Part shown: positions 1 through 32,444 of the stretch, piece by piece
Layout: the number at the start of each line of letters is the position of its first letter
Position numbering within the stretch: the stretch's first letter is position 1
Source: Fusobacterium perfoetens
GTDB taxonomy: Bacteria; Fusobacteriota; Fusobacteriia; Fusobacteriales; Fusobacteriaceae
DNA length: 35,486 nt
NCBI RefSeq assembly: GCF_021531475.1
Contig: NZ_JADYTX010000021.1
Coordinates: forward strand, 1-35,486
Direction of reading: 5' to 3'
Position numbers and translations under genes: made by a program
Notes under the pieces: generated by a model
What the model was told of the DNA's origin: nothing
The model's database searches: none
Seen by the model: only the letters and a program-made list of their open reading frames with translations

Positions 1-111
1 TCCTATGATATTAATTTTATCATAGAAAGCTATTAAAAGTTAGTATTATTTAATTTACAGAATCTTTTTCACAGGCTCATATAGAATTTAATTAATGTCA
101 AGAGAGTTTTT
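1..111. other. Non-coding tail downstream of zorD
   Basis: AT-rich stretch after the zorD stop with no ORF. It contains one perfect inverted repeat at 3-25 (8-base arms CTATGATA/TATCATAG around a 7-base loop). No T-run follows on either strand inside the window, so I do not call it a terminator. The neighbouring gene to the left is outside the window. Confidence 0.5.
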
Positions 112-3100
112 TTATTTTAATTTTTCTTGAAGTTCATTAAAAGTAACTTGGTATTTTTCTAGTAATAAACTCAAAATTTTTCTGTCAATTATTTCTATAT
201 TATTACTTTCTCTTTCTTTTAAAGAATTATAAACTTCTGAATTTGTAACAACAGCCACTTTTTTTATCTTTATATTTAATTCTTTTTCATAAATATTTTT
301 TCCAGATAAAACTTCTTCTAAAGCTGATTTGTCAATTTTATTTTTACTTTTTTTTACTTGAATAGCCATAAAATCATTTTCGCTCAATTGGATTAAACCA
401 TCAACTCCAAAGTCACCTGTTTTTTTGGTTAAAAATCCTTTTTTATTATATTTTTTTTCTAATAAAATTATCGCAGCAGCTTCTAAAAAATTCCAATCTA
501 AGATATCTAAAGTTTCGATATTGATAATTTTTTCTTGGGCGATATCTTTGTCTTTAAATTCATTAAAATCTGTTTCATCCATATCAATGGGAGCTGCTAA
601 AAAGAAATCTCTCAATAATTTTTTCTTTTTTATGATAATTTTATTTAATTTTTCTTCAGGAGAGCTAGTGTTTGTGAAATTAAATTTTTCTGATTCAATC
701 CATTCATCTACCGAATTAAATATTAATTTTCCATATGTTTCATCAGAGGAAATCAGAGGATAGTAAACAAAAACATCTTTTGTTTGTCCTAATCTATAAG
801 CTCTATCTGTTGCTTGTTCTTCTTTCGCAGGATTCCAATGTCTAGTATAATGAATTATATGATTTGCTTCTACTATATTTAATCCAACACCAGCGGCTTC
901 TGGAGATAAAATAATAATATTAAATCCTTTACTTTCTCTATAATTATCTAGTAACATTCTTCTTATTTCTGAAGAATCTTCTCCGTTTATAATATTTGGA
1001 TTAAATCCATACCATTCTTTAATAACTATAGATAATATTTTTTGCATTTTTTTATATTTGGTAAAAATAATTGCTTTTTCATTTTTTTGTTGGACTAAAT
1101 CCAAAATTTCTTTTGTGTTCTCTAGTTTTAAGCTTTCATTTATTAACTCTAAGTTACTTACATTAAGTTCATTTTTATTTTCAACAAGTTTTGGATGACT
1201 ACAAACCATTATCATTCTTTGAATTAGAGGTAAGACAGCATTTCCTTGCAATTTCATTTTATTGAACTGTTCTAATAACTCAGTTTGTTTTTTAGAGTAT
1301 TTTAAATGATGGTATATAATTATTTTTTTAGGAAAATATTTTCCTTGATGATTTAAAATATCTTTAGTTCTTCTTATGAAGTGTTCTCCTAGTTTAGATT
1401 TTAATTCATCATTTATTTCTGATAATTTATTTTCATCTTTATTTTTTGTTAAATATTTTTTCTTAAATTCTTTTAAAGAACCTAATAAACCTGGATTTGA
1501 AAAGTCAACTAAACACCATAGATCCAAAATTGAATTCTCAATAGGGGTAGCACTACAAGCAATTTTAAAATTCGCATTTTGGGTCTTTATAGCGGTTGTT
1601 ATAAGAGTATTTGGGTTTTTTATTTTTTGTGCCTCATCACAAATCATTACATCCCATTTATTTTTTCCTAGTTCAATATGATTTATTCTCAAAGTTTCAT
1701 ATGAAGTTAAAAGAATATTGGAGTTATTTATTCTTTCTTTTTTTTCTTTAGTCAGTTTTCCTTTTAATATTTCAACACTAAAAGTTTCTTTTTTAAAAAA
1801 TCTTTGAATTTCTCCTTGATTACTTTCTTTTTCGCTTTCATTAAACCAGTTTCTAATTAATGAAATCGGTACTACTATTAAAGCCTTTAAATTATTATTT
1901 TTTTCTTTTATCCAAGATAAAAAAGTTAAAATTTGAAGAGTTTTTCCTAGTCCCATATCATCTGATAATAAAACACCGTTTATGTTATTATTTTTGTGTA
2001 AATTTTGCATTATTGCTACCCCTTCTTCCTGATAAGGTAGCAATTTTATATTTTCTTTTAAATTTTTAGGTTGTATGTATTTATATTTACAGATCTGAGC
2101 ACTGTCTTTTTCTATATGTTCTAGTTCATCTATATTATCTTTTAAAAGTAGAACTTTTTTCTTTAATTTTTCTTCTGAATTTTTATTAAGTTCCTCAACT
2201 TCTTTTTCTTTGATAACTTCTTTTAAATATTCTTTATCAGTTACATTTTTTACATAAAAACCTTTGTATTCTATATATTCTTCGTTTGTTTTTTCCATTA
2301 ACTCTAATAGATTTTTTAAATCTTTTGCTTTTTTAAAATCTATAACTTCTTTACAAGAATTCTTTATTTTTAAAATTTCATTTTGTAAATCTTTTTCAGA
2401 AAGTAATAATTTTCTTTTTCCCTCTTCAGTATTAAATTCTATTAAAACTTTGTCTTTTATCTTTTTGCTTTCTTCTAATTTTTTTTCTAAATATTCCCTA
2501 TCATTTGGCTTTAATTTTATTTGTTCACCATCTATTGTATCTATATATGGTAATTCAAAAGAAAACCAATCAATGTCAACGTTATTTTGTGTTGGGTTAG
2601 TTCTATAATTTAAAAACCCTAAACCTTTTACTCTCGGTCCGTAATTATATTCTAATTCCTCTGTGTTCATTCTCTCATCTAAAAAAATAGAATTTTCTTT
2701 TTTTAAAAAATCTTTTTTAGAAATAAGGTTATTATTTTCTTTTACGACTGTTAGAGCTTCTAAAAGCTCATTGCTTAAAATTATTTGATGTTCTTTGTCA
2801 TCTATTTTTATGGTGTAGTTTTTTTTAAGTCCTGTTTTATTTTTAAATTCTTTTTTAAAAGCATCTATTATTTTTTGGTCTTGAAAGTTTTCAGAATCAG
2901 TTTTTAAAAGAGGAATAATTTCCATATTATTTAGATCTTTTTCCTCAAAATCTAGTTGTAAATTATTTATAAGATTAATTTCACCGATTTTTTCAATTTC
3001 TTTTCCTAAAATAATACTCTTTTTTGTTGCTAAGTTTTTAATTTTTTTTACTATCTTATATTGTTCTAAAGGGATTGTATTTTTAATACTATTTTCATTA

Positions 3101-3576
3101 TATTCTATTATATCTTTAACTAATTCATAATCATCTTTTTGCAGTAAAAATTTTTTTTCATCTTTTTCTCTTAAAATAATATTATTTTTTTCATATCTAT
3201 ATTTATTTTCTCCATCAATAAATAGAATATTATATTTTAAACCAGATTTATTTAAAAAATACGAGTCATTTTCTATTTTTAATATTCCGTAAAAATATTG
3301 AGGAAAACCAAAAAAATTTAAACTTTCTTCATCTAACTGGTAAATATTTTCATAGGGCAGTTTTAAATAATTTTCTTCTTTACTAATTGCAAAAACATCT
3401 GTATTTAATAAATATTCATACTCTTTTTGACTAAAATTACTTATTGAACACTTTTTATTGTTTTTAAAGATTTCTATAAGAATATAATCATCCTCATATT
3501 TTTTTTTAAACTCATATTTTATTTCTTTTGTATTTTTAAAAATTTTAGAAAAAATATTCTTTAACGCCATGTCCAT
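112..3576 (-). CDS. zorD: ZorD: SNF2-family helicase with C-terminal Mrr-like nuclease (Zorya type I)
   Basis: Effector of the Zorya type I anti-phage system, acting in the cytoplasm on phage DNA. The protein is 1154 aa. The first ~500 residues are lysine/glutamate rich and I recognise no domain there. A SNF2 helicase core follows: Walker A DDMGLGKT (K545), Walker B box DEAQ (D647-E648), SATPIEN, and motif VI near ATDRAYRLGQ. The last ~120 residues look like an Mrr-type PD-(D/E)xK nuclease: GDFGVDG with D1059, then AIQVKK with Q1073 and K1075, i.e. the Qxk variant of the motif. It is the last gene of zorABCD and overlaps zorC by 16 bases if the first ATG is used. A second ATG two codons later (3570) has better spacing (9 bases) from GGGAG, so the exact start is uncertain. 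Helicase plus nuclease with zorABC makes the assignment firm; substrate details are inferred from the family. Confidence 0.93.
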   Translation of the reverse strand: MDMALKNIFSKIFKNTKEIKYEFKKKYEDDYILIEIFKNNKKCSISNFSQKEYEYLLNTDVFAISKEENYLKLPYENIYQLDEESLNFFGFPQYFYGILKIENDSYFLNKSGLKYNILFIDGENKYRYEKNNIILREKDEKKFLLQKDDYELVKDIIEYNENSIKNTIPLEQYKIVKKIKNLATKKSIILGKEIEKIGEINLINNLQLDFEEKDLNNMEIIPLLKTDSENFQDQKIIDAFKKEFKNKTGLKKNYTIKIDDKEHQIILSNELLEALTVVKENNNLISKKDFLKKENSIFLDERMNTEELEYNYGPRVKGLGFLNYRTNPTQNNVDIDWFSFELPYIDTIDGEQIKLKPNDREYLEKKLEESKKIKDKVLIEFNTEEGKRKLLLSEKDLQNEILKIKNSCKEVIDFKKAKDLKNLLELMEKTNEEYIEYKGFYVKNVTDKEYLKEVIKEKEVEELNKNSEEKLKKKVLLLKDNIDELEHIEKDSAQICKYKYIQPKNLKENIKLLPYQEEGVAIMQNLHKNNNINGVLLSDDMGLGKTLQILTFLSWIKEKNNNLKALIVVPISLIRNWFNESEKESNQGEIQRFFKKETFSVEILKGKLTKEKKERINNSNILLTSYETLRINHIELGKNKWDVMICDEAQKIKNPNTLITTAIKTQNANFKIACSATPIENSILDLWCLVDFSNPGLLGSLKEFKKKYLTKNKDENKLSEINDELKSKLGEHFIRRTKDILNHQGKYFPKKIIIYHHLKYSKKQTELLEQFNKMKLQGNAVLPLIQRMIMVCSHPKLVENKNELNVSNLELINESLKLENTKEILDLVQQKNEKAIIFTKYKKMQKILSIVIKEWYGFNPNIINGEDSSEIRRMLLDNYRESKGFNIIILSPEAAGVGLNIVEANHIIHYTRHWNPAKEEQATDRAYRLGQTKDVFVYYPLISSDETYGKLIFNSVDEWIESEKFNFTNTSSPEEKLNKIIIKKKKLLRDFFLAAPIDMDETDFNEFKDKDIAQEKIINIETLDILDWNFLEAAAIILLEKKYNKKGFLTKKTGDFGVDGLIQLSENDFMAIQVKKSKNKIDKSALEEVLSGKNIYEKELNIKIKKVAVVTNSEVYNSLKERESNNIEIIDRKILSLLLEKYQVTFNELQEKLK

Positions 3577-4835
3577 ATTCTCCCTTCTGCCCTATATCCT
3601 AATTCTGACAACCTATATTTAAAAACTGTTTGCCAATTTGAAGAATGATTCCATCCGTTACTTATATTGAATTGTTTTAATGGAATTGCGTTTTTCCAAT
3701 TTTTTAACCTTTCTTTTACAATTATAATAGAATTATTATTATACCAACTTCTTATTATTAGTGAATTTACATTTTTTTTAGGATAAACATAAGTTGCATT
3801 TCCTTTTTTTCCAAATTCGATAACAGTATGATTTTCAAATTCCATTACTATAGCTTGAGCTAACTTTTCATAATAATCTATATTTTTTAAACAATATGCA
3901 TAACTTTTCCAAAAAATGGCTCTTTCAGGATCTTTAATTTCTTTGCCAAAAAATTCGTCCAATTTTTCTTGGAAAAACCACTTAGAAAAAATATTTTTTT
4001 CATTTTCATTAAAAAATAGCCAGGAATTATTTTTTTTCTGAATATCTCCGACTACATCTAATATTTCATAAAACCACATATTCGTATTTTCGTTGAAGTT
4101 TCCATGTTTGAAATAGGCATTTAGTATTTTTTTGTATAGTTCTATTTTATCCGAGTAATTTGTTATTTTTCTTTTAAAATTTTCTTTTATAACTTCATTT
4201 GTTTTTTTACTCTTCTTTATAACAATTATTTCTATATAATTTCTTATAATATTTTCAATAATATCATAAAATAATTCAGATTTTTTATCGATATAATATT
4301 CTAATTCATATTCTAATAAGTTAGAAAGATATTTATCCATATCTTTTAAAAATTTTCCACTTAAAAATGAAACAACCTTTTCATTATTTTGTTTCATTTC
4401 TAAAAATAATTTTGTCTTTTTAGAATAAGTTACATCTTTTAATTTATTAATTTTATCAGATATAGAAAAAATTATATTTTGAATTTCAGAGCTTTTATAA
4501 AATATTATAACAGAATCATAAAAAATGTCTAAATTAAAGAAGTCATTTTTAATAGATTCATTTTCTAATGTGTATTCTAATCTTTTTAAAAACTCCTCTA
4601 TACTTAGACTATATTTTTCTTTCAAAATAATTTTTACTTGTCCAATATTATAAAAAATTTTTAAAATATCATTCGTTTTTATTAGAGATTTGTTTAGTAA
4701 ATTTTCTATTATATATCTTAATTCAAAATCACTTATTTTAGATTTTTTTTCTCCCCATTCTAATTCGATATTTTCTACAGTTTTTTTAAGTTCTTTACAT
4801 TTATAAATATCAAGATTTAATTTTATTAACTTCAT
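3561..4835 (-). CDS. zorC: ZorC: EH-signature domain protein of Zorya type I
   Basis: Third gene of the Zorya cassette, 424 aa, soluble, no membrane segment or signal peptide. The N-terminal ~300 residues are helical and lysine/isoleucine rich with no motif I recognise. The conserved part appears to be the C-terminal ~100 residues: FENHTVIEFGKKGNATYVYP (H336, E340), then NGWNHSSNWQ (H397) and a final aromatic/basic tail ending in IWTWR. This fits the EH-signature domain that defines ZorC in type I systems. ZorC is thought to work with ZorD in recognising or processing invading DNA; its biochemical activity is not clear from sequence. The start overlaps the end of zorB by 26 bases and has no strong Shine-Dalgarno, so translation is probably coupled to zorB. 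The call rests mainly on position between a clear ZorB and a clear ZorD, supported by the C-terminal motif. Confidence 0.85.
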   Translation of the reverse strand: MKLIKLNLDIYKCKELKKTVENIELEWGEKKSKISDFELRYIIENLLNKSLIKTNDILKIFYNIGQVKIILKEKYSLSIEEFLKRLEYTLENESIKNDFFNLDIFYDSVIIFYKSSEIQNIIFSISDKINKLKDVTYSKKTKLFLEMKQNNEKVVSFLSGKFLKDMDKYLSNLLEYELEYYIDKKSELFYDIIENIIRNYIEIIVIKKSKKTNEVIKENFKRKITNYSDKIELYKKILNAYFKHGNFNENTNMWFYEILDVVGDIQKKNNSWLFFNENEKNIFSKWFFQEKLDEFFGKEIKDPERAIFWKSYAYCLKNIDYYEKLAQAIVMEFENHTVIEFGKKGNATYVYPKKNVNSLIIRSWYNNNSIIIVKERLKNWKNAIPLKQFNISNGWNHSSNWQTVFKYRLSELGYRAEGRIWTWR

Positions 4836-5595: not shown

Positions 5596-7812
5596 TTATT
5601 TTTCCTCTCTTTCTTTTGAGATAGTGTTTTCTTTTAGTGCTTCTAATTTCTTATCAAAAGTTTCTATTTTTTCTTCTATTAATTTATTTTCTATTTTTAA
5701 AATATCAACTTGATTTTCAGTCATTTCTTTTGTTTCTATTATAACTTCTGAAAATTTAATTATCTTTTCATCAAAAGTTTGTAATGCTGAATTAAAACTT
5801 CCTATGGCAATAGAAAGATTTTTATCGTAATCTGTAAATAAATCTACTAATCCATTTTTAATTTCTTTTGTATAATCTACAGTTTGATTTTTTATGAAAA
5901 TATTATATTCATCAGAGCTTTGTTTTAATATACTTCTTAATTCAATAGATGTTTCTTTTAAATTTTCTTTATATTTTTCTAAGCTTTCTGATAATTTTTC
6001 TTGATATTGATCTAAATTCGTAGATAACTTTTCATTAATTCCTTTAAATGTCTCTTCATAATTAGACCATAATTCTTGAACTTCTTTTTCTGCGTAGAAT
6101 AACTCTTTTGAATTTTCTAAAAGGGTTGTAGCTACATTCATAACATTTTTATTTTCTTCTAAAATTTTTACATTATTGTTTTGAACAGATACTAATTCAT
6201 CTAACATTTCAGTTAATTGATTGCTTGTTTCAACATATTTTGTGCTTACTTTATCAACTTCTATTATTACTTTTTTAAAATCACTGTTAATTTTTTCTAT
6301 TGTTTCAGCAAAATTTTCTTTTAACTCTGAAGTTTCTTTAAGAATATCTAAATAGGATATTTTTAACTCTGAAAGTTTTTCTATCGAAATAGTTATTTCT
6401 TCTTTAAATTCTTTCATTTTTAAAGAATTATCAGAAAAAATTACAGATATTTGTCCTAAAGAATCGTTTATGTTTGCAATTAGTTCTTCATTAAAAATTT
6501 TTTCTAAAGATTGAGAAAGTTCAGTTTTAAAATTAGTGCCAACACTATTTGAAAAGTCTGAAATATTTGTACTTATCTCTTTAGCCATGGTTTCTATTTG
6601 ATTAGCTATTTTAGTTCCTACATTAGAGGAATAATCAGAAATATTTTTATTTAAATTTTCTGACATAATATTTATTTGACCTGATAATTCCTTTGCCATA
6701 TCATTATTAGACTCTTTTATATCGTTTAAAGATTTTATAATTATATCTATCGAATCTTCTTTTATGCTTTTTTTTGTCAAAGAATTTATCTTTCTTCTAA
6801 TTATAGTTATTGTTTTTTCTATATCATTAAAATGAATATTTATAAAGTTAGAAAGTACTAATGAATAACTTAGTCCAAATAAACTTGTATAAAAAGCTGT
6901 TTTTACTCCACTTAATAAACTTCCCACTCCTACTTCTATAGATTCCACATTACTTAAATCTAATTGAGATAATCCTGATGTTAAGCCATAAAATGTTCCT
7001 AACATTCCAAGTCCTACTAAAAATTGTGGCATATAATTAAATACTTTATAACTTATTTGTTGTTTATATATTACATCAAAATTAAAAAAATTATCTGAAT
7101 CTATGGTTTCGTATTTTTTTCCATCTTTAGTATAAAGTGTTTCTATATAGTTTCTCCATTCTTTTTTTATTATAGAATTATTTGGAAGTCCTTCGATTTT
7201 TTCATTTAGTTCACCATAATCTTCTGTATTTTCAAGAGTATCTCTAAAATTTTTTAAATTATTTATTTTCTTCTTATCTTTTATTAGTCTAATAAATATA
7301 CTTCCCCAAAATATTGATGACATTATTAAAAAGAATAATTCATTAGCAGACACTATATTTTTTTTATAAATAATTCCATTATATTCTTCTTTTAAGATAT
7401 TATCCTTTAAAAGTTCTTGATAGTCGCTTTCAAAGTAATTTTCTAAATATATTTTTTTTAAAAGATTTATATTTAGCTTTCTATTTAAGTAAATAATCTT
7501 AATTATATTTTTTTCTACTTCATTTAAAGAAGAAATATTTAATTCTTTATTAACAATTATATCATTTGAAGAGATCTCTATTTTTTTAGAATTGTTTAAC
7601 TTTTCTAAAGATTTATCAAATGATATTTTTTGTAAATATTCTTTTTTTAGTTGTTTTTTAGATTCATTATTAGAAACTAAAGATACTATTTTTTGCTTGT
7701 TAAAATTTCTTAGTTTTATTCCCCCGAAGCAAGTTAAAGAAATTCCAATAGTGATTATAAAAAAATAAATCAACTTAGTTCCATTATTTTTCAATATTTT
7801 TAGTTCTTTCAT
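5596..7812 (-). CDS. zorA: ZorA: MotA-like proton-channel subunit with long cytoplasmic coiled-coil tail
   Basis: Membrane motor subunit of Zorya, 738 aa. Four predicted membrane helices lie near 14-32, 157-177, 262-284 (MPQFLVGLGMLGTFYGL, the MotA/ExbB-like segment) and 298-325 (VGSLLSGVKTAFYTSLFGL). From ~330 to the end the protein is a long heptad-rich tail, as expected for the tail ZorA projects into the cytoplasm. The tail holds an imperfect repeat, NISDYSSNVGT (390-400) and NISDFSNSVGT (416-426), 26 residues apart. Unusual for a MotA-like protein is the ~125-residue segment between helices 1 and 2. Part of it (about 95-152) reads like a compact helix-helix-helix-hairpin unit. The start is set by AAAGGGG upstream of the ATG. 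It is the first zor gene, 34 bases after mnmH. Confidence 0.93.
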   Translation of the reverse strand: MKELKILKNNGTKLIYFFIITIGISLTCFGGIKLRNFNKQKIVSLVSNNESKKQLKKEYLQKISFDKSLEKLNNSKKIEISSNDIIVNKELNISSLNEVEKNIIKIIYLNRKLNINLLKKIYLENYFESDYQELLKDNILKEEYNGIIYKKNIVSANELFFLIMSSIFWGSIFIRLIKDKKKINNLKNFRDTLENTEDYGELNEKIEGLPNNSIIKKEWRNYIETLYTKDGKKYETIDSDNFFNFDVIYKQQISYKVFNYMPQFLVGLGMLGTFYGLTSGLSQLDLSNVESIEVGVGSLLSGVKTAFYTSLFGLSYSLVLSNFINIHFNDIEKTITIIRRKINSLTKKSIKEDSIDIIIKSLNDIKESNNDMAKELSGQINIMSENLNKNISDYSSNVGTKIANQIETMAKEISTNISDFSNSVGTNFKTELSQSLEKIFNEELIANINDSLGQISVIFSDNSLKMKEFKEEITISIEKLSELKISYLDILKETSELKENFAETIEKINSDFKKVIIEVDKVSTKYVETSNQLTEMLDELVSVQNNNVKILEENKNVMNVATTLLENSKELFYAEKEVQELWSNYEETFKGINEKLSTNLDQYQEKLSESLEKYKENLKETSIELRSILKQSSDEYNIFIKNQTVDYTKEIKNGLVDLFTDYDKNLSIAIGSFNSALQTFDEKIIKFSEVIIETKEMTENQVDILKIENKLIEEKIETFDKKLEALKENTISKEREEK

Positions 7813-7846
7813 TATATTTTTCCCCTTTATTTACTAAATAACTTTT

Positions 7847-8878
7847 TTATTCTTCAAATTCTTTTTCTTTTAAAAACTCTATGATTTTGTCAACAGCCTC
7901 ATCAATATTTTCATAATGAATATTTAAGTCATATTGATGTTTTCCAATACCGATATCGTAAAGAGGGTCGTAATATTCTTTCATTAGAACCTCACTAAGT
8001 TCAGCGATTTTTCCCTCCATAAGCATCGCATGATATCTTTTATATCTTTCTTTACTTATATATCTAGCTACTTTTAAAAGACATTCTTCTAAACTTTCAA
8101 TAGAGGCATTAGAATAATCTTCCATTATTATTTTTACTCTATTTTCCATAGTTGTACTTACAAAAATATGAAGTCCATTAATAATAGAGTCATAAATACA
8201 TTCAGGAACATAAATATCTCCTATTCTTTTACTTTCGCTTTCAACTAAGAAATATTTTTTTTCATTTTTTATAACAGCATCAAAAATTTCTCCATCAAAT
8301 CTTTTTTGGCTTTGTTTTCTCTCTTCACATAAAGCTCCAAAGAAAGATCCTTTGTGGTCAGCCATTTTTTCAAGATTAAGAACAGAGTATCCTTTTTCTT
8401 GTAATTTTTCAAGAATTTTGGTTTTTCCCTCTCCTGTTCTTCCGTGGATAACAATATATTTTATATCTTTATTTCTCTCTTCAATAGTGTTTAAAATAAA
8501 TTGTCTATATGCTTTATATCCACCTTGAAGTTTAAAAGTTTTATATCCAAGACTATTAAAAAGCACCTCTAAAGTCGTACTTCTCATACCACCTCTAGCA
8601 CAATAAAATACAAGTTTATCATATTGTTTTGAAAGCTCATTAATTTCTTTGAATATTATAGGCAATCTTTTTGAAATTTTTTCAATTCCAATTTCCTTGG
8701 CTTTTTCTTTGGAAACTCTTACATAGGCAGTACCAACTTCAGCTCTCTCGTCATCAAGAAGAGATGGAATATTGATAGCTCCAGGGATTGGTTCTTCTTT
8801 AAATTCTTTAGGACTTCTAACATCTATTAAAATATAGTTTTTTAATTTTAAAATATCTTCAAAATGGATCTCTCTCAT
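7847..8878 (-). CDS. mnmH: tRNA 2-selenouridine synthase (MnmH/SelU)
   Basis: Replaces sulfur by selenium in 2-thiouridine at the wobble position of certain tRNAs, using selenophosphate, via a geranylated intermediate in characterised homologues. The protein is 343 aa. It has an N-terminal rhodanese domain with FYCARGGMRS, whose C93 is the expected active-site cysteine. A P-loop domain follows with GRTGEGKT (146-153). Both halves and the length fit the family. Its presence implies that the organism makes selenophosphate (selD elsewhere). A good promoter lies at 8908-8936 and the ribosome site is GGTGAGG. The Zorya genes follow in the same direction after 34 bases, so mnmH probably heads a longer transcript. 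Confidence 0.95.
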   Translation of the reverse strand: MREIHFEDILKLKNYILIDVRSPKEFKEEPIPGAINIPSLLDDERAEVGTAYVRVSKEKAKEIGIEKISKRLPIIFKEINELSKQYDKLVFYCARGGMRSTTLEVLFNSLGYKTFKLQGGYKAYRQFILNTIEERNKDIKYIVIHGRTGEGKTKILEKLQEKGYSVLNLEKMADHKGSFFGALCEERKQSQKRFDGEIFDAVIKNEKKYFLVESESKRIGDIYVPECIYDSIINGLHIFVSTTMENRVKIIMEDYSNASIESLEECLLKVARYISKERYKRYHAMLMEGKIAELSEVLMKEYYDPLYDIGIGKHQYDLNIHYENIDEAVDKIIEFLKEKEFEE

Positions 8879-8907
8879 ATATACCTCACCTTTCTGATTT
8901 ATATTTT

Positions 8908-8936
8908 ATTATAAACCAAAATCTAAAGAATATCAA
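8908..8936 (-). promoter_or_regulatory. Sigma70-type promoter of mnmH (and probably zorABCD)
   Basis: Read on the minus strand: TTGATA (8931-8936), a 17-base spacer, TATAAT (8908-8913). This is near consensus and about 30 bases upstream of the mnmH start. It is the strongest promoter I can find ahead of the Zorya genes. Confidence 0.75.
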
Positions 8937-8956
8937 ATAAATAATGAAAATAACTA

Positions 8957-8985
8957 TTGCCAAAGTCTATTTTATGGGGTACAAT
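8957..8985 (+). promoter_or_regulatory. Distal candidate promoter of pckA
   Basis: TTGCCA (8957-8962), 17-base spacer, TACAAT (8980-8985): each box is one base from consensus. A start near 8992 would give pckA a leader of about 190 bases. Confidence 0.5.
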
Positions 8986-9081
8986 GTAGAGTGGACTAAA
9001 AATATACCACGACCAATAATTATTTTTTATGCAAAGTATATAAAAAATAAATAAAAAATATTAGAACAAAATTTAGAAATT

Positions 9082-9090
9082 TGCTATAAT
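9082..9090 (+). promoter_or_regulatory. Proximal extended -10 promoter of pckA
   Basis: TGCTATAAT is a perfect extended -10 element; the -35 region is poor (TTAGAA, 18 bases upstream). The predicted start falls near 9097, at the edge of the palindrome at 9098-9125. Confidence 0.6.
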
Positions 9091-9097
9091 AAATTTG

Positions 9098-9125
9098 TTG
9101 ATAAAAAATATTATTTTTTAATCAA
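9098..9125. repeat. Near-perfect palindrome at the pckA proximal transcription start
   Basis: Arms TTGATAAAAAAT and ATTTTTTAATCAA flank a 3-base centre, with one extra A in the right arm. It starts about eight bases after the extended -10 box, so it could be an operator or a hairpin at the 5' end of the RNA. AT richness makes chance inverted repeats common, which limits confidence. Confidence 0.4.
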
Positions 9126-9185
9126 AAAACGATTATTAATTATTCTAAATTTCTAAAAAATGGAAAGCGTTGAGGAGGTTACACT

Positions 9186-10862
9186 ATGGCTACAAAAACT
9201 TATTACAAAACAGAAGAAATAGGGGCTAATAAACCTGGATTTTCAAGAACACGTTCTATAATTGAAGCTGCTTTTTATGGAAACAACGTAACAAAAGTTA
9301 CAACATTAAAAGAAGCATACAAACTAGCTAAAGCTTCACCGGGAACAATAGTTACAGATATTCCTGTTTATAAAGGTGAAGAATTTGGATTAGAGCCAGA
9401 TACAAAAGTTTTACTATTCAACGATGGACCTATAACAGGACGTTTCGCTGCTGCTAGAAGAATAGTAGGAGACCCAGATATAGATAAAGCAAGACTTGAT
9501 AAAACTTTGATGAATGCTGTTTATTATACAAGATTCAAAAAACTTTATCATGCAGAAGTTTATATTGGACTTAACCCAGAATTTATGGTAAAAGCTCACC
9601 TTTTAATTCCTGAAGGAGACGAAAATATCATGTATTCTTGGATGTTGAACTTCCAATATTTATCAATAGAATATTTAAAAATGTATAAAAATTCAAGAGT
9701 TCTTCCAAAAGAATCTGACATCTATATTTTCTCAGATCCATTCTGGAAAGGAACTAGATATGTAGAAGCAGCTGACCCAGAATATTTAACATATTTTGAT
9801 CCAGAAAATAACTGTGCTGCAATCTTAGGAATGAAATATTTCGGAGAATTTAAAAAAGGAACTTTAACTTTAGCTTGGGCTATTGCTAACCGTCAAGGAT
9901 ATGTATCTTGTCATGGTGGACAAAAGAAATATACATTAAAAGATGGAAGAAATTATGTAGCATCATTCTTTGGATTATCTGGAACAGGAAAATCTACATT
10001 AACTCATGCAAAACATAATGGAAAATATGATGTAACAATTCTTCATGATGATGCTTTTATTATAAATACAGAAACTTGTTCATCAATAGCTTTAGAGCCA
10101 ACATATTTTGATAAAACAAATGACTATCCAGCAGGAAGTCCTGACAATAAATATCTATTAACAGTTCAAAACTGTTCTGCAACTTTAGATGAAAATGGAA
10201 AAGTTGTAATAGTTACTGAAGATATACGTAACGGAAATGGAAGAGCTATTAAATCTAAACTTTGGTCACCTAACCGTGTAGATAAAATAGAAGAACCAGT
10301 AAATGCAATATTCTGGTTGATGAAAGACCCAACACTTCCACCAGTAGTAAAATTAAAAGGAGCATCTCTTGCATCAGTTATGGGAGCTACTCTTGCTACT
10401 AAGAGAAGTAGTGCTGAAAGACTTGCTCACGGAGTTGACCCTAACGCTCTAGTAGTAGAACCATATGCAAACCCATTTAGAACTCATCCACTATCAGATG
10501 ACTATAATAAATTTAAAAAATTAGTTGGAGATAAAAATGTTGAGTGTTATATTTTAAATACTGGAGAATTTATGGGTAAAAAAGTTCAACCTAAAGATAC
10601 TCTAGGAATACTTGAAAAAATAGTTGATAGAGAAGCAGAATTTAAACCTTGGGGACCATTCTCTGATATAGAAATTCTTGAGTGGGAAGGATTTGTACCT
10701 AATTTAGAAGATCCAGAATATCTAGATGCTCTAAAAAATAGAATGAAAGATAGACTTGAATTTGTAAAATCAAGAGAAACATTTAAAGGTGGAAGAGATA
10801 GACTTCCTGAAGATGCTTTTGAAGCAATAGAAAAAGTTGTTAAAGAAATAAATGCTCTATAA
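9186..10862 (+). CDS. pckA: Phosphoenolpyruvate carboxykinase (ATP), divergent form
   Basis: Interconverts oxaloacetate plus ATP and PEP, CO2 plus ADP. In a fermenter it may run in either direction. The protein is 558 aa, slightly longer than the usual ~530-540. It shows the PEPCK P-loop GLSGTGKS (263-270) and an acidic pair in LHDDAF (D288-D289), plus a conserved DGPITGR segment (80-86). The familiar GRSPKDK substrate motif of the E. coli-type enzyme is not seen; around the equivalent place the sequence reads ITGRFAAARRI. The family is clear but this is a divergent branch. Ribosome site TTGAGGAGG precedes the ATG. The gene stands alone and ends at a strong terminator. Codon use and base composition are richer in G+C than the Zorya genes, consistent with high expression. 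Confidence 0.88.
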   Translation: MATKTYYKTEEIGANKPGFSRTRSIIEAAFYGNNVTKVTTLKEAYKLAKASPGTIVTDIPVYKGEEFGLEPDTKVLLFNDGPITGRFAAARRIVGDPDIDKARLDKTLMNAVYYTRFKKLYHAEVYIGLNPEFMVKAHLLIPEGDENIMYSWMLNFQYLSIEYLKMYKNSRVLPKESDIYIFSDPFWKGTRYVEAADPEYLTYFDPENNCAAILGMKYFGEFKKGTLTLAWAIANRQGYVSCHGGQKKYTLKDGRNYVASFFGLSGTGKSTLTHAKHNGKYDVTILHDDAFIINTETCSSIALEPTYFDKTNDYPAGSPDNKYLLTVQNCSATLDENGKVVIVTEDIRNGNGRAIKSKLWSPNRVDKIEEPVNAIFWLMKDPTLPPVVKLKGASLASVMGATLATKRSSAERLAHGVDPNALVVEPYANPFRTHPLSDDYNKFKKLVGDKNVECYILNTGEFMGKKVQPKDTLGILEKIVDREAEFKPWGPFSDIEILEWEGFVPNLEDPEYLDALKNRMKDRLEFVKSRETFKGGRDRLPEDAFEAIEKVVKEINAL

Positions 10863-13426: not shown

Positions 13427-14407
13427 ATGGTAAATATACTAACACCTTTAAAAATAAAAAATATAGAGATTAAAAATAGAGTTGTTCTTCCACCTCTTGT
13501 AAGATTTTCTATGATAGAAGATGACGGATATGTAACAGAAAAACTTCTTAAGTGGTACGAAAGTATCGCCCAAGATGGTGTAGGAATGATAATAGTTGAG
13601 GCTACCTGTGTAAGTTCTGACGGAAAACTTAGAGATAATCAACTTGGTATTTGGGACGATTCTTTTATAGAAGGACTTAGCAAAATAGCCGAAATTGGTA
13701 AAAAATATAAAATCCCTATGCTTATTCAAATTCATCACGCTGGTTTTGGAAAAAATATAAAAGATGTTGATGAAAAAATCCTTGATGATATTTTGGAAAA
13801 ATTTGTTGAGGCTTTTGTAAGAGCTAAAAAAGCAGGTTTTGACGGAATAGAAATCCACGGGGCTCACACTTATCTTTTATCACAGCTTAACTCAAGACTT
13901 TGGAACACAAGAGATGATAAATATGGTGGAGATTTTCAAAGAAGAATGTATTTCAATAAAACTTTGATTGAAAGGACTAAGTATCTTTTCGATGATAATT
14001 TTATTCTTGGGTACAGACTTGGAGGAAATGAGCCAACAATAGAGGATAGCACTGAGATAGCAAAATATCTTGAAAGTTTGGGATTAGATTTAATTCATAT
14101 TTCAAGTGGAATACCAGAAGAGAGATTTAGACAAGCTGCCAAAATAGATAATTTTCCAGAAAATTATCCAGAAGAAAAAGATTTTAATCTTGATTGGGTA
14201 ATATATATGGGGGTAGAGATAAAAAAACATCTTCATATACCTGTTATCGGAGTGAGAAATATAAGGACAGAGGAACAAGTGAGCTATCTTGTAGAAAATA
14301 ATCTTTTGGATATGGTAGCAGTAGGTAGAGCAATGATATTTACAAATCATTGGATGAGAAAAGCAAGAAAATCATATTTAAAGAGGGTAGAAAATGACAC
14401 CAAATAG
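13427..14407 (+). CDS. NADH:flavin oxidoreductase, Old Yellow Enzyme family
   Basis: FMN-dependent TIM-barrel ene-reductase, 326 aa, the short single-domain form without the C-terminal Fe-S/FAD domains of 2,4-dienoyl-CoA reductase. Family marks include the N-terminal LTPLKIKNIEIKNRVVLPP, IQIHHAG, IEIHGAHTYLLSQLNSR followed by DDKYGGDFQRRM, and the C-terminal phosphate-binding DMVAVGRAMI. The natural substrate cannot be read from the sequence. GAAGAGGAA precedes the ATG. It is the first gene of an operon and its end overlaps the earP start by 14 bases, so the three genes are co-expressed, though no functional link of an OYE to EF-P modification is known to me. Confidence 0.9.
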   Translation: MVNILTPLKIKNIEIKNRVVLPPLVRFSMIEDDGYVTEKLLKWYESIAQDGVGMIIVEATCVSSDGKLRDNQLGIWDDSFIEGLSKIAEIGKKYKIPMLIQIHHAGFGKNIKDVDEKILDDILEKFVEAFVRAKKAGFDGIEIHGAHTYLLSQLNSRLWNTRDDKYGGDFQRRMYFNKTLIERTKYLFDDNFILGYRLGGNEPTIEDSTEIAKYLESLGLDLIHISSGIPEERFRQAAKIDNFPENYPEEKDFNLDWVIYMGVEIKKHLHIPVIGVRNIRTEEQVSYLVENNLLDMVAVGRAMIFTNHWMRKARKSYLKRVENDTK

Positions 14408-15557
14408 TATAGATATTTTTTGTGATGTAATAGATAACTTTGGAGATATTGGAGTAGTTTACCGTTTTGCCAAAGAGATGAAAATATTATACAGTGATGC
14501 AAGAATAAGAGTTATTCTTAACAAACTTGATGAACTTGTAAAAATAAATAAAGAGGCAGAAAAAGTAAATATCCAAGATATTAACGGAGTAACATATATA
14601 TATGAAGATTTTTTCAAAAAAAACTTTTCTCAGTTTGGAGTTTCTGATATAATGATTGAGGCTTTTGGTTGCAATATCTTTGACGAGTATGTAGACGAGG
14701 CAAAAGAGAAATCAAAACTTTGGATAAATCTTGAATATCTTTCAGGAGAAAAATGGGTAGAAGATTTTCATCTTAACCAGTCTTTGATAAACTCTAAAAC
14801 TTTAAAAAAGATTTTCTATATGCCAGGATTTTCTAAAAAAAGTGGTGGGGTCTTAATAGATTCTGAATTTTTAAAAAATAAAGAATATGGTTTAAATCAT
14901 AGAGATGAGGTTTTAAAAGAATATTTTTCTGATATAGATTTTGAAGGAAAACTAGTTGGAACAGTATTTTCATATGAGAAAAATTTTGAAAATCTTTTGG
15001 ATACTTTAAATCAACAAGAAAAAGAAACAGTTCTTATTCTTATGGGAGAGAAAACTCAAAATAGTTTTAAAAAATTTTTTGAAAAAAATTCATCAGGGGA
15101 CTATATAAATTTTAAGAAATATGATAAAATATATCTGTATAATGCCAAATTCTTTTCACAAGAAGAATATGACAGGATTATACCAGCTGTGGATTTTAAC
15201 TTTACGAGAGGAGAAGACTCAATAGTTAGAGCAATAACAGTAGGTAAACCTTTCTTGTGGCATATATATCTTCAAGATGATAAAGTTCATATGACAAAAC
15301 TTAGAGCTTTCTTAGATAGATTTTTAGAAAGTGTTACTCTAAATAATGAAGAAAGACAAGTTATAAAAAAATATTTTAAACTTTTGGAAGATTATAATGA
15401 TAGAAGTTCGAATTCTTTTGAAAAAGGGAAAGAGGATTATAGAGTTTTCTTTGAGAAGTTTGATATTATAAATAAAGTTTGCAAAGAATACAGTGAGTTT
15501 TTAATAAACAACTGCAATTTAACAAAAAAATTATATAAATATATAAAAGAAATTTAA
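14394..15557 (+). CDS. earP: EarP: EF-P arginine rhamnosyltransferase
   Basis: Transfers rhamnose from dTDP-L-rhamnose to an arginine of elongation factor P, which EF-P of this type needs to rescue ribosomes stalled at polyproline. The protein is 387 aa, a normal length for this GT-B glycosyltransferase. It shows CDVIDNFGDIGV with D14 and D18, matching the two catalytic-region aspartates of characterised EarP, and TRGEDSIVRA with E274 next to GKPFLWHIYLQDD, the nucleotide-sugar pocket. GAGGG precedes the ATG. Directly downstream, 11 bases away, is efp, whose product has arginine at the acceptor position. Enzyme and target together make the assignment very secure. Confidence 0.96.
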   Translation: MTPNSIDIFCDVIDNFGDIGVVYRFAKEMKILYSDARIRVILNKLDELVKINKEAEKVNIQDINGVTYIYEDFFKKNFSQFGVSDIMIEAFGCNIFDEYVDEAKEKSKLWINLEYLSGEKWVEDFHLNQSLINSKTLKKIFYMPGFSKKSGGVLIDSEFLKNKEYGLNHRDEVLKEYFSDIDFEGKLVGTVFSYEKNFENLLDTLNQQEKETVLILMGEKTQNSFKKFFEKNSSGDYINFKKYDKIYLYNAKFFSQEEYDRIIPAVDFNFTRGEDSIVRAITVGKPFLWHIYLQDDKVHMTKLRAFLDRFLESVTLNNEERQVIKKYFKLLEDYNDRSSNSFEKGKEDYRVFFEKFDIINKVCKEYSEFLINNCNLTKKLYKYIKEI

Positions 15558-15568
15558 AGGGGGACAAA

Positions 15569-16132
15569 ATGAAATTTGCTCAAGAATTAAGACAAGGATC
15601 AACTATCAAAATAGGAAATGATCCATTTATCGTATTAAAGGCAGAGTACAACAAATCTGGAAGAAATGCTGCGGTAATGAAATTAAAAATGAAAAACTTA
15701 ATAGCTGGAAACATCGTGGATACTGTTTTAAAAGCTGACGAAAAAATGGACGATATCAGATTAGATAAAGTTAAATGTATCTATTCTTACAACGATGGAA
15801 CTAACTATATCTTCTCTAACCCAGAAACTTGGGATCAAATCGAATTATCAGCTGAAGATTTAGGAAACGCTTTAAACTACTTAGAAGAAGAAATGGAAGT
15901 TGAAGTTGTTTACTACGAATCTACTCCAGTTGCAGTAGAATTACCTACATTTGTTGAAAGACAAATCGAATACACAGAACCAGGATTAAGAGGAGATACT
16001 ACTGGTAAAGTATTAAAACCAGCTAAATTAAACACTGGATTTGAAGTACAAGTTCCTTTATTCGTTGAACAAGGTGAATGGATTAAAATAGACACTAGAA
16101 CTGACGAATATGTTGAAAGAATCAAAAAATAG
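15569..16132 (+). CDS. efp: Translation elongation factor P (EarP-modified type)
   Basis: Binds between the P and E sites and promotes peptide bond formation at proline stretches. The protein is 187 aa with the normal three-domain beta-barrel EF-P length. The domain I loop reads YNKSGRNAAV with R32 at the tip, the acceptor of EarP rhamnosylation; lysine-type EF-Ps (EpmA or DHS-like modification) have Lys here. The C-terminal domain motif GLRGDTTGKVLKPAKLNTG is intact. AAAGGGGG precedes the ATG and a strong terminator follows. Base composition is that of a highly expressed gene. Confidence 0.98.
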   Translation: MKFAQELRQGSTIKIGNDPFIVLKAEYNKSGRNAAVMKLKMKNLIAGNIVDTVLKADEKMDDIRLDKVKCIYSYNDGTNYIFSNPETWDQIELSAEDLGNALNYLEEEMEVEVVYYESTPVAVELPTFVERQIEYTEPGLRGDTTGKVLKPAKLNTGFEVQVPLFVEQGEWIKIDTRTDEYVERIKK

Positions 16133-26926: not shown

Positions 26927-29900
26927 TTATTTTTTAGATTTTCTTTTTTCTTCATACATTTCAGCTTTTTTATCCATTTTTTCTCTTAGAGGAGCTATTA
27001 ATTTTTTAATAAATCCAAGAACTTTGTTGTTCATATCTTCAACCAAAGTATAAAGAACAGGGATAACTACTAGAGTTAATAATGTAGAGAATGAAAGTCC
27101 AAACATAACTGTTACAGCCATTCCTCTATAGATTTCAGAACCTTCTCCAATTCCTAAAGCAAGTGGTAACATACCAAATACAGTAGTCATTGTAGTCATT
27201 AGAATTGGTCTAAGTCTTGTTCTACAAGATTCAATAACAGCTTCAGCTCTCTCAACACCTCTTTCTCTTGTTATATTGATAAAGTCAATAAGAACGATGG
27301 CGTTGTTAACAACGATACCAGCTAGCATTATTATACCAACCATAACCATTATATCAATAGGTTGTCTAAATGTAACAAGTCCTATTAAGATACCAATGAA
27401 AGCTAATGGGAATGAACCTAAGATAATTACAGGTAACACAAAGTTTTCAAATTGAGATGCAAGTAGTGCATATATTAAGAATAATGATATTCCAAGAGCT
27501 GCTCCCAATTGTCCAGATGCGTCTTGTAAGTTTTCAGAATCTCCACCGAATTTATAAGAAACTGTACTAGGTGGGTTAGTTTCATTAAATGCTTTTACAA
27601 GTTCATTTTGAATAGCAACTAATCCAGGACCACCATCGTTAACAGAAACAGAAACTGTATAAATTCTATCTTGTTTATTAATTTCTGATGAACCTTCAAC
27701 CACTTTGATATCAGCTACGTCAGAAACTTTTACGAATTCATTATCACCAATTTTTATATTTAAGTTAGATAAATCTGATATACTACTTCTTAATTCTTTA
27801 GGAAGTCTTACTAAAATATCAATTTCTTCTGTACCAGTTTTAACAGTAGTAGTATTTCCTCTATCTCCTCCTAATATGAAGTAACTAATTGTTTGTCCAA
27901 CAGTGATAGGGTTGATACCATATGCTTGTATTTTTTCTCTGTTAAGAATAATTCTAGCTTCTGGGTTACCTGGGTCTAAAGATGAAGTAATATCAACAGC
28001 ACCTTCAAAGTTTTTAATCTTGTCAGCAACTTGTTTACCAATTTCTTTTAACTCATCATAGTTAGGTCCCATTATGTTAATTTCAACGTCTCTTTGAGGA
28101 GCACTCATAGCAAAGTTTTCTGATAAACTGATTCTTGTATCAGGAATTTTTTCTACAAGAGGTCTTATTCTATCAATGATTTCAAATACAGATGTATCTC
28201 TTGTATCTTTTTTACCAACGTCAACGTTTATAGATATAGTATTGTTAGTGATAAAGTCAAAGTAGTATTTTGTATCAGGATCTTCTTTAACAATATCTTC
28301 TATTTGATTAGCTATATCTTGAGATTTTGCTATATCAAGTCCATTTCCTAATTCGGCAACTATAGAATATCTTCCTTGGTCTTGTTTAGGCATGAATTCT
28401 ACTTTTAAGAAGTTCATACAAGTACCAACAGTAACAAAGAAAGTAACTATAGTGATAAGAACTACTTTTAATCTGTTAGTAACAGCCCAAGTGATGATAG
28501 ATAGATATTTAGCTTTAACACCAGCAAAGAATTTACCTTCACTTGTGATATTTACTTTATTACTTAAGAACTTACTAGCTATCATAGGCATTAAAGTTAA
28601 TGAAACTATTAAAGCTGCTAAGTTTGAGAATATAATTGAAAGTGACATGTCACGGAATATCTCTCTTGCAATACCAGGTATAAATAATATAGGTATAAAT
28701 ACAACCATTGTAGTAAGAGATGATGCAATGATAGACATTGTAACCTCAGTAGTACCGTTATCAGATGCTTCAATAACTGGAGAGTGTAACTCTGTCATAT
28801 GACGATAAATATTATCTATAACAACAACTGAGTTGTCTGTAAGCATTCCAACCCCAAGTGATAATCCCATTAAAGAGATAAGGTTGATACTTGTTCCACT
28901 AAATGAAAGGAATGCAAATGTAAACATAATTGATACTGGAAGAGCTAGAGATATAAGTAATGTAGCTCTTATATTTTTTAAGAATACTAATAAAACTATT
29001 GTTGCAAGAACAAGGGCTTGTAAAGCACTTGAACTGATACTTGAAATAGATTTTGTAATGTCTTCAGATGTATCAAGTAGTACTGTAAAATCAGTTCCTG
29101 GAGGCATTATAGGTTTTAAGTCTTCAAAGGCTTTATTAACACCTTTATTAAGATCTATTGTACTTCCGTCAGCAGATTTTTCTACTGCAACAACGATACC
29201 TTCTTTTTGGTTTAAGAATCCTAAGTCAGTAAAGTCTTCTGTAGTAAGAACTACTTCAGCTACGTCAGATACTCTTAATGAGTTACCATTACTATGGATT
29301 ACTAAGTTTTTAATCTCATCTATGTAGTTTGTTTCACCCATAAATCTACCAACGATTTGTTTGCTACCTGTGTTGATAGTACCTAGAGGTAAGTTTTTAC
29401 TAGAATAAGAGATTATATTATAAAGTTCCATAGGTGATAAATTATAAGCTGATAATTTATCAGGATTAATTTGTAATTGGATTTGTTTTTGTGGGTTGCC
29501 GAAAACCTTAACTTGTCCAATACCTTTTAAAGATTCTAGTCTTGGTTTTAAATATTCATCAACGAAACTTCCCATTTCACTTCTACTTTTACCAGTAAAC
29601 ATAGCAACCATTGTTAAGTTACCTGCTCCAGCTTCTACTTTTCTGGCAACTGGTGTATCGGCGTCATCTGGTAAATCGTTTGTGATTCTTGATATCTCTC
29701 TTTGGATATCTGTTACTTTATCGTCAGCATCAATACCGAAATCAAATTCTACAACAACAGTAGATTGACCGAAAGCTGATGTTGATGTTATCTTATCAAT
29801 ACCTTCAATGTTAGGTAAAACTTCTTCAATTTTTTTTGTTACTTGTGTTTCAACGTCTTCTGGAACAGCTCCATTCCAAGAAGTTGTAACTGTTACAACT

Positions 29901-30028
29901 GGAATATCCATATTGGGTAAAAGCTCAGATTTCATTGTTAACATAGCAATAAGTCCTATGAAAATCATAGAAATCATAAGCATTGTAGTTGCAACGGGTC
30001 TACGAATTGACAAACCTGCTAATGTCAT
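26927..30028 (-). CDS. RND-family efflux permease (AcrB/HAE1-like)
   Basis: Inner-membrane proton-driven pump of a tripartite exporter, 1033 aa, normal length. It starts with the family N-terminus SIRRPVATTMLMISMIFIG, has 12 expected membrane helices in two repeats, two large periplasmic loops, and helix-4 motif GMLTDNSVVVIDNI. There the proton-relay pair is D398-N399 rather than Asp-Asp, a variant common in non-proteobacterial relatives. Helix 10 has GIVVNNAIVLIDFIN. Substrates cannot be read from the sequence. The start is preceded by AGGAGGGA. It lies 13 bases after the membrane-fusion gene in the operon. Confidence 0.96.
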   Translation of the reverse strand: MTLAGLSIRRPVATTMLMISMIFIGLIAMLTMKSELLPNMDIPVVTVTTSWNGAVPEDVETQVTKKIEEVLPNIEGIDKITSTSAFGQSTVVVEFDFGIDADDKVTDIQREISRITNDLPDDADTPVARKVEAGAGNLTMVAMFTGKSRSEMGSFVDEYLKPRLESLKGIGQVKVFGNPQKQIQLQINPDKLSAYNLSPMELYNIISYSSKNLPLGTINTGSKQIVGRFMGETNYIDEIKNLVIHSNGNSLRVSDVAEVVLTTEDFTDLGFLNQKEGIVVAVEKSADGSTIDLNKGVNKAFEDLKPIMPPGTDFTVLLDTSEDITKSISSISSSALQALVLATIVLLVFLKNIRATLLISLALPVSIMFTFAFLSFSGTSINLISLMGLSLGVGMLTDNSVVVIDNIYRHMTELHSPVIEASDNGTTEVTMSIIASSLTTMVVFIPILFIPGIAREIFRDMSLSIIFSNLAALIVSLTLMPMIASKFLSNKVNITSEGKFFAGVKAKYLSIITWAVTNRLKVVLITIVTFFVTVGTCMNFLKVEFMPKQDQGRYSIVAELGNGLDIAKSQDIANQIEDIVKEDPDTKYYFDFITNNTISINVDVGKKDTRDTSVFEIIDRIRPLVEKIPDTRISLSENFAMSAPQRDVEINIMGPNYDELKEIGKQVADKIKNFEGAVDITSSLDPGNPEARIILNREKIQAYGINPITVGQTISYFILGGDRGNTTTVKTGTEEIDILVRLPKELRSSISDLSNLNIKIGDNEFVKVSDVADIKVVEGSSEINKQDRIYTVSVSVNDGGPGLVAIQNELVKAFNETNPPSTVSYKFGGDSENLQDASGQLGAALGISLFLIYALLASQFENFVLPVIILGSFPLAFIGILIGLVTFRQPIDIMVMVGIIMLAGIVVNNAIVLIDFINITRERGVERAEAVIESCRTRLRPILMTTMTTVFGMLPLALGIGEGSEIYRGMAVTVMFGLSFSTLLTLVVIPVLYTLVEDMNNKVLGFIKKLIAPLREKMDKKAEMYEEKRKSKK

Positions 30029-30041
30029 TTTTCCCTCCTAA

Positions 30042-31091: not shown

Positions 31092-31131
31092 ATATATCCT
31101 CCATTTAAAATTTTTAATATACTTAGGTTTA

Positions 31132-32415: not shown

Positions 32416-32444
32416 AAAGAATATCACCTCTTATATTTAAAATT

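What the first reader, a model, noticed from the sequence alone, without database searches (positions are those of the whole stretch)
7812..8936. Zorya genes appear transcriptionally attached to mnmH
Seen: only 34 bases separate mnmH from zorA, with no terminator and no good promoter, while mnmH has a near-consensus promoter. A defence cassette read through from a tRNA selenation gene could tie defence to selenium or translation status, or simply exploit a constitutive promoter.
Basis: partly seen in the sequence, partly recalled or inferred. Interest (0 to 1): 0.5.

Follow-up and report, generated by a model that had tools for sequence, protein, structure and literature searches.

The report
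Zorya operon behind mnmH, terminator displaced
In this Fusobacteriaceae genome a complete anti-phage Zorya operon sits directly behind a tRNA-modification gene, at the place where related species carry that gene's transcription stop signal, so the defence genes are probably switched on by the neighbour's promoter; it looks like a local accident of genome rearrangement, not a sign of selenium control.

Summary
mnmH (8878-7847, minus strand) is followed after 34 nt by zorABCD, with no terminator-like structure and no promoter-like site better than chance between them. mnmH has a TTGATA-17-TATAAT promoter whose place is kept in 4 of 4 genus genomes that share its divergent PEPCK-like neighbour. 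Comparison adds the likely cause. In 5 of 5 readable congeners a strong hairpin begins within 11 nt of the mnmH stop and a convergent gene follows (recQ in four, a GGDEF gene in G006); no Zorya is there. In this genome the hairpin and recQ lie on another contig, joined to other chromosomal genes, and homology behind mnmH stops 4 nt after its stop codon. So the chromosome was broken between mnmH and its terminator, and Zorya now stands there, lower in G+C than its neighbours and with a multicopy repeat on its far side. The likely consequence is read-through of zorABCD from the mnmH promoter. No defence cargo was seen at this place in the genus, and nothing supports control by selenium or translation status beyond an intact selenium pathway shared by all seven species. 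One genome; no transcript data. Ordinary in kind (divergent type I Zorya), informative as a traceable case of operon capture.

The parts
8908..8936 (-). mnmH promoter, TTGATA-17-TATAAT; probable source of zorABCD transcripts
   Evidence: 11 of 12; same place in G000, G001, G003 (11 of 12) and G004 (10 of 12)
7847..8878 (-). mnmH, tRNA 2-selenouridine(34) synthase, intact 343 aa
7813..7846 (-). 34-nt junction: no terminator; its last ~22 nt carry the zorA ribosome-binding site (AAAGGGG), similar by eye to those of other zorA genes; homology with mnmH flanks of relatives ends at 7843
5596..7812 (-). zorA (738 aa), MotA/ExbB-like motor protein with long tail and an extra N-terminal hydrophobic helix plus ~120-aa segment
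4810..5592 (-). zorB (260 aa), MotB-like with OmpA domain; Asp of WLSIGDLM aligned with that of 8qyd ZorB
3561..4835 (-). zorC (424 aa), EH_Signature, weak match
112..3576 (-). zorD (1154 aa), SNF2 helicase plus Mrr-type nuclease domain
1..78 (.). multicopy repeat beside zorD; 8 of its 10 other copies lie at contig ends (insertion-sequence-like)
9186..10862 (+). PEPCK-like gene, divergent neighbour of mnmH in G000, G001, G003 and G004

Best explanation
A complete, divergent type I Zorya operon stands at a chromosomal breakpoint between the mnmH stop codon and mnmH's own intrinsic terminator. mnmH lost its terminator, and zorA came to lie 34 nt behind it with little more than its ribosome-binding site. 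RNA polymerase starting at the conserved mnmH promoter should therefore run on into zorABCD, giving a constitutive mnmH-zorABCD transcript. Shown: gene order, 34-nt gap, missing terminator, the corresponding hairpin elsewhere in this genome and behind mnmH in relatives, promoter conservation. Inferred: that the hairpin ends mnmH transcripts in relatives, that read-through is the main source of zorABCD RNA, and that one rearrangement, perhaps helped by the repeat beside zorD, made the junction.
For: Hairpin starting within 11 nt of the mnmH stop in 5 of 5 readable congeners (G001, G002, G003, G005, G006; G004's contig ends inside mnmH), 0 of 50 shuffles of each giving one; none in the window. 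The built-in scan calls it in the mnmH direction in G005 and G006. In this genome recQ (77% identical to G003's; the other three matches, 24-41%, are weak) and the corresponding hairpin are on contig C2, followed by a DUF486 gene and a core block that in G001 and G003 stands elsewhere. Homology of the window with L031/L032 stops 4 nt past the mnmH stop; that of C2 stops in the last 5 bases of mnmH. Conserved mnmH promoter. zorABCD packed as an operon: 3-nt gap, then 26- and 16-nt overlaps. Zorya G+C 20.9-22.8%, eight other window genes 25.9-36.7%. In G005, G009, G014 and G056 the nearest gene before zorA is 154, 308, 182 and 220 nt away, not 34.
Against: No RNA data. One genome; no second strain of the species is held. 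The built-in scan, which allows no mismatch in the stem, calls the G003 hairpin and the C2 hairpin only in the recQ direction; in the mnmH direction G003's stem has one mismatch, accepted by my looser search and by the folds. In the wider family only 11 of 28 readable loci (30 examined; 48 of 61 genomes have mnmH) have such a hairpin, so outside the genus transcripts may often run past mnmH or end otherwise; Rho-dependent ending in the gap cannot be excluded. 3 of 4 other zorA upstream regions also score at chance, so a non-canonical zorA promoter could be missed here too. The far side of Zorya is lost at the contig end.
Confidence: 0.7

Rival explanations
1. zorA has its own promoter, weak or non-canonical, in the 3' part of mnmH or in the gap; adjacency to mnmH adds little.
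For: AT-rich region full of near-matches; best candidates TTGACA-15-TAAAAG at 7893 and TTGATG-18-TAGAGT at 7905. Other zorA genes also lack matches clearly better than chance in 3 of 4 cases.
Against: The best site in the last 334 nt scores no better than shuffles (61.5% reach it). A second promoter would not stop read-through, as no terminator was found between the genes.
Confidence: 0.23
2. The junction is selected: coupling to mnmH ties defence to selenium supply or tRNA wobble modification.
For: The selenium pathway looks intact: SelD with one in-frame TGA right after CSxGG in 7 of 7 genus genomes.
Against: The same promoter serves mnmH in G001 and G003, without Zorya there; no regulatory RNA family hit; 0 of 4 other readable ZorABCD loci of the phylum stand behind mnmH.
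Confidence: 0.03
3. The junction is an assembly artefact or contaminant.
For: Draft genome of 92 contigs, 1.2% contamination; contig ends 111 nt beyond zorD in a repeat.
Against: The displaced recQ and hairpin lie inside another contig, joined to other core genes, not at a contig end; two independent misjoins would be needed (inference). The repeat is on the far side of Zorya, not at the mnmH-zorA junction.
Confidence: 0.04

Closest known systems
Zorya type I (ZorABCD)
   Same: Four genes in order A-B-C-D; motor-like ZorA/ZorB, EH_Signature ZorC, SNF2 plus Mrr ZorD; PADLOC ZorD1 1076 bits, ZorB1 272.5 bits; matches ZorA and ZorB chains of 8qyd and related entries, and 8qy7 for ZorD (that 8qy7 is ZorD is recalled, its title says DEAD/DEAH box helicase).
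   Different: Below NCBIfam cut-offs: best ZorA model 94.5 of 100, ZorB1 76.5 of 400, ZorD 397.2 of 1500; ZorA has an extra N-terminal helix and segment; only 34 nt before zorA.
ZorABCD of congener G005 (L089)
   Same: Same gene set and order, ZorD 56% identical.
   Different: At another locus, behind a TetR gene, with 154 nt before zorA holding a TTGATA-19-TAGAAT site (5% of 300 shuffles reach it) and a hairpin that the scan calls only on the opposite strand, though Ts follow it by eye.
Core defence hotspots: P. aeruginosa cDHS1 (PMC10250203, passages seen) and E. coli hotspot #37, favoured by Zorya-carrying elements (PMC10121019, passages seen)
   Same: Defence cargo beside conserved genes, in cDHS1 pheS/pheT and ihfA.
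   Different: Those sites hold various systems in many strains; behind mnmH no cargo was seen in 5 of 5 readable congeners.

Membership tests
Zorya type I | zorA-zorB-zorC-zorD in one operon-like row | tested here: met
Zorya type I | ZorA MotA/ExbB-like motor protein with long tail | tested here: met
   PADLOC ZorA1 122.9 bits, PDB 8qyy E 2e-13; NCBIfam ZorA_2 94.5 bits, under its cut-off of 100
Zorya type I | ZorB with membrane Asp and peptidoglycan-binding domain | tested here: met
   OmpA 46 bits over its cut-off of 27.2; Asp aligned with 8qyd ZorB; NCBIfam ZorB1 equivalog cut-off not reached
Zorya type I | ZorC EH_Signature protein | tested here: inconclusive
   Pfam 27.0 bits against 27.5; PADLOC ZorC1 E 4e-07
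Zorya type I | ZorD SNF2 helicase with nuclease domain | tested here: met
   SNF2, Helicase_C and Mrr_cat above Pfam cut-offs; PADLOC ZorD1 1076 bits; NCBIfam ZorD cut-off not reached, 397.2 of 1500
Zorya type I | anti-phage activity | not testable with these tools
   none
Defence hotspot downstream of mnmH | variable defence cargo at the same place in relatives | tested here: not met
   Nearest downstream gene in 5 of 5 readable congeners is recQ (4) or GGDEF (1). Of 10 nearest downstream genes scanned across the family (2 of them congeners'), only recQ (helicase cross-match) and one weak WYL match hit PADLOC; genes further out and the other family genomes were not scanned.
Operon captured by read-through from a host gene | host terminator absent between host gene and cargo, present in relatives | tested here: met
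   for the scan's opposite-strand call
Operon captured by read-through from a host gene | continuous mnmH-zorA transcript | not testable with these tools
   no RNA data

The most novel reading that the evidence does not exclude
Zorya operons can travel nearly promoterless, with conservation starting about at the zorA ribosome-binding site, and acquire expression by landing between a housekeeping gene and its terminator, so that the host gene's promoter sets the level of a defence system that seems to damage host DNA when over-expressed and to protect poorly when expressed too little.
Probability: 0.12. Interest if true: 0.55.

Novelty: new member of a known kind. Interest (0 to 1): 0.3.

Why it matters
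Level of expression seems to matter for Zorya. In PMC11890865 (passages seen) type I Zorya under its native promoter did not protect against phages Mav or Alma when the over-expression tests were repeated, and over-expression gave signs of single-strand breaks in host DNA. A case in which the donor of the promoter, the lost terminator and the place it went can be pointed to makes 'who drives an acquired defence operon' directly testable. It does not reveal a new system.

Tried and rejected
Hotspot idea: not borne out in the genus nor in the family sample. Selenium or translation coupling: the pathway is there but nothing links it to zorA. Simple insertion of a small cassette between mnmH and its terminator: not supported, since the hairpin-recQ unit in this genome adjoins a DUF486 gene and a core block found elsewhere in G001/G003, so a larger rearrangement is involved; its kind cannot be resolved with a draft. 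Search of named genomes with mnmH gave no relative; with the ZorA alignment one, L097. The 28-nt junction was not found in viral contigs. A first terminator count misread loci on the minus strand and is replaced. The windowed identities of zorA upstream regions (free end gaps, AT-rich) do not discriminate, so that only the ribosome-binding site is shared is judged by eye. Literature, listings only unless said: no paper held both 'mnmH' and 'anti-phage'; 'Zorya' with 'Fusobacterium' gave one unrelated dental paper; others (15 of 92 listed; 5 of 5; 7 of 7; 1 of 1; 8 of 87 listed) showed no title or abstract start on read-through of Zorya from a host gene. Passages were read in PMC11890865, PMC12458937, PMC10250203 and PMC10121019. 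A structure prediction of the ZorA N-terminal segment was poor (mean pLDDT 44.3) and is not used.

Full report
Setting. The window is contig C21 of a 2.02-Mb draft in 92 contigs, 99.99% complete. One relative in its family, G048, has a contig of the same number and length (C137, 4909 nt) as record CAMTIW010000137.1, titled uncultured Fusobacteriaceae bacterium, so the family is taken as Fusobacteriaceae. Seven genomes of the genus are held; 7 of 7 have mnmH.

Observation. mnmH (7847-8878, minus) and zorA (5596-7812, minus) are 34 nt apart. MnmH passes NCBIfam's cut-offs. The four following genes match ZorA, ZorB, ZorC and ZorD in PADLOC, ZorD1 at 1076 bits and ZorB1 at 272.5, with SNF2 and Mrr domains in ZorD and OmpA in ZorB. 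NCBIfam's Zorya models for A, B and D are matched but not to cut-off, and ZorC is borderline (27.0 of 27.5 bits in Pfam), so this is a divergent type I Zorya. Spacing is tight: 3-nt gap, then 26- and 16-nt overlaps.

Promoter and terminator. TTGATA-17-TATAAT at 8936..8908 is the only 11-of-12 site of the 11 kb scanned. In the four genomes that share the PEPCK-like divergent neighbour the same site is kept: 11 of 12 in G000, G001 and G003, 10 of 12 in G004. In G002, G005 and G006 the upstream neighbour differs and the site is another one. In the last 300 nt of mnmH plus the gap nothing rises above shuffles (weights recalled, E. coli-like). No terminator-like structure lies in 7700-9180, none is found by a looser search, and the junction has no stable fold.

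What relatives show. In G001, G002, G003, G005 and G006 a strong hairpin with a T-rich tail begins within 11 nt of the mnmH stop and a convergent gene follows. That gene is recQ by Pfam in G001, G002, G003 and G005 and a GGDEF gene in G006, where recQ lies about 3.6 kb further on. G004's contig ends inside mnmH. In none of the five does Zorya lie there; in the genus a ZorD above 800 bits is found only in G000 and G005, the latter at another locus. The built-in terminator scan calls the hairpin in the mnmH direction in G005 and G006 but in G003 only in the recQ direction, because one mismatch interrupts the stem; in the folds it is a long hairpin either way. G001 and G002 were not put through that scan at this place.

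The displaced terminator. In the window's genome recQ (77% identical to G003's) is on contig C2, and next to it stands the corresponding hairpin, followed by a DUF486 gene and a block of core genes. That block is collinear with G001:C1 and G003:C2 over more than 8 kb but has other neighbours there, and DUF486 lies about 79 kb away from it in both. Homology between window and L031/L032 ends 4 nt after the mnmH stop; homology between C2 and the same loci ends in the last 5 bases of mnmH. The two pieces thus meet at one breakpoint between the stop codon and the hairpin. Because mnmH-hairpin is the state in 5 of 5 readable congeners, the window's genome is the derived one.

Origin of the cassette. 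zorABCD is 20.9-22.8% G+C against 25.9-36.7% for eight other window genes. On its far side, 33 nt after zorD, a repeat begins. Its first ~78 nt occur in 10 other places in the genome (8 at 98% identity or more, one 95%, one 82%); 8 of the 10 are at contig ends, as unresolved insertion sequences are. No transposase was identified among the open frames listed beside the internal copy on C12 (by eye). In the phylum, 7 of 98 genomes have a ZorD above 800 bits with this one profile; more distant Zorya may be missed. Upstream of zorA could be read in four besides the window: G009, G014, G005 and G056, with 308, 182, 154 and 220 nt to the nearest gene; none stands behind mnmH. By eye the zorA leaders share little beyond the ribosome-binding site. 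G046 and G048 have the genes on contig fragments and could not be read for this.

Wider family. Of 30 mnmH loci examined (48 of 61 family genomes have mnmH), 28 were readable, the window's included, and 11 have a strong hairpin (0 or 1 of 50 shuffles do). In 5 of the 20 loci fetched a co-directional 191-aa gene overlaps the end of mnmH; the one scanned is VanZ-like below Pfam's cut-off. So a hairpin right behind mnmH is the rule in this genus but not in the family, and mnmH sharing a transcript with a following gene may not be unusual.

Mechanism. The simplest reading is constitutive read-through from the mnmH promoter. Selenium: SelD with an in-frame TGA right after CSxGG occurs in 7 of 7 genus genomes, so MnmH can probably be supplied, but nothing makes its promoter selenium-responsive, and the promoter is the same in G001 and G003 without Zorya there. 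In PMC11890865 (passages seen) type I Zorya from its native promoter did not protect against Mav or Alma, and over-expression was accompanied by signs of host DNA nicks; a change of promoter may therefore matter.

Verdict. The thing is ordinary in kind and unusually clear in detail.

Noticed in passing
window 7342-7812 (ZorA N-terminus); L097:6-1265; L086:8644-11328: ZorA here has an extra N-terminal hydrophobic helix and ~120-aa segment before the motor core (window residue 168 aligns with residue 31 of the solved ZorA). In G009 and G048 the segment is some 230 aa longer and looks by eye like several degenerate helix-turn-helix-like modules; by ExbB-like topology (recalled) it would be periplasmic. 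BLAST found no self-repeat and the model was poor (pLDDT 44.3), though residues 116-175 showed a three-helix plus hairpin layout.
   Followed up: partly
window 1-78: Repeat with 10 other copies in the genome, 8 at contig ends (insertion-sequence-like); the internal copy at G000:C12:35707-35780 has no obvious transposase beside it.
   Followed up: partly
window 8957-8985 and 9186-10862: Divergent PEPCK-like gene with a promoter-like site (TTGCCA-17-TACAAT) in a stretch conserved in relatives and about 200 nt of leader; above Pfam's PEPCK cut-off (83.8 of 26.5 bits) but far below NCBIfam's (135.4 of 369).
   Followed up: no
window 14394-16132: EarP, an EF-P arginine rhamnosyltransferase (Pfam 317.5 bits over 25; NCBIfam 296.3 under 347), directly followed by EF-P in a Fusobacteriaceae genome.
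   Followed up: no
window 26927-33095: AcrB-type efflux pump, outer-membrane efflux protein and TetR regulator in one row.
   Followed up: no
L087:1731-12404: Two different ZorA/ZorB pairs starting about 8 kb apart in G014.
   Followed up: no
L090:8498-13096: A 1532-aa ZorA-like protein in G020 with a very long tail, repetitive by eye.
   Followed up: no
L047:4115-5148: mnmH of G008 is split into two open frames.
   Followed up: no
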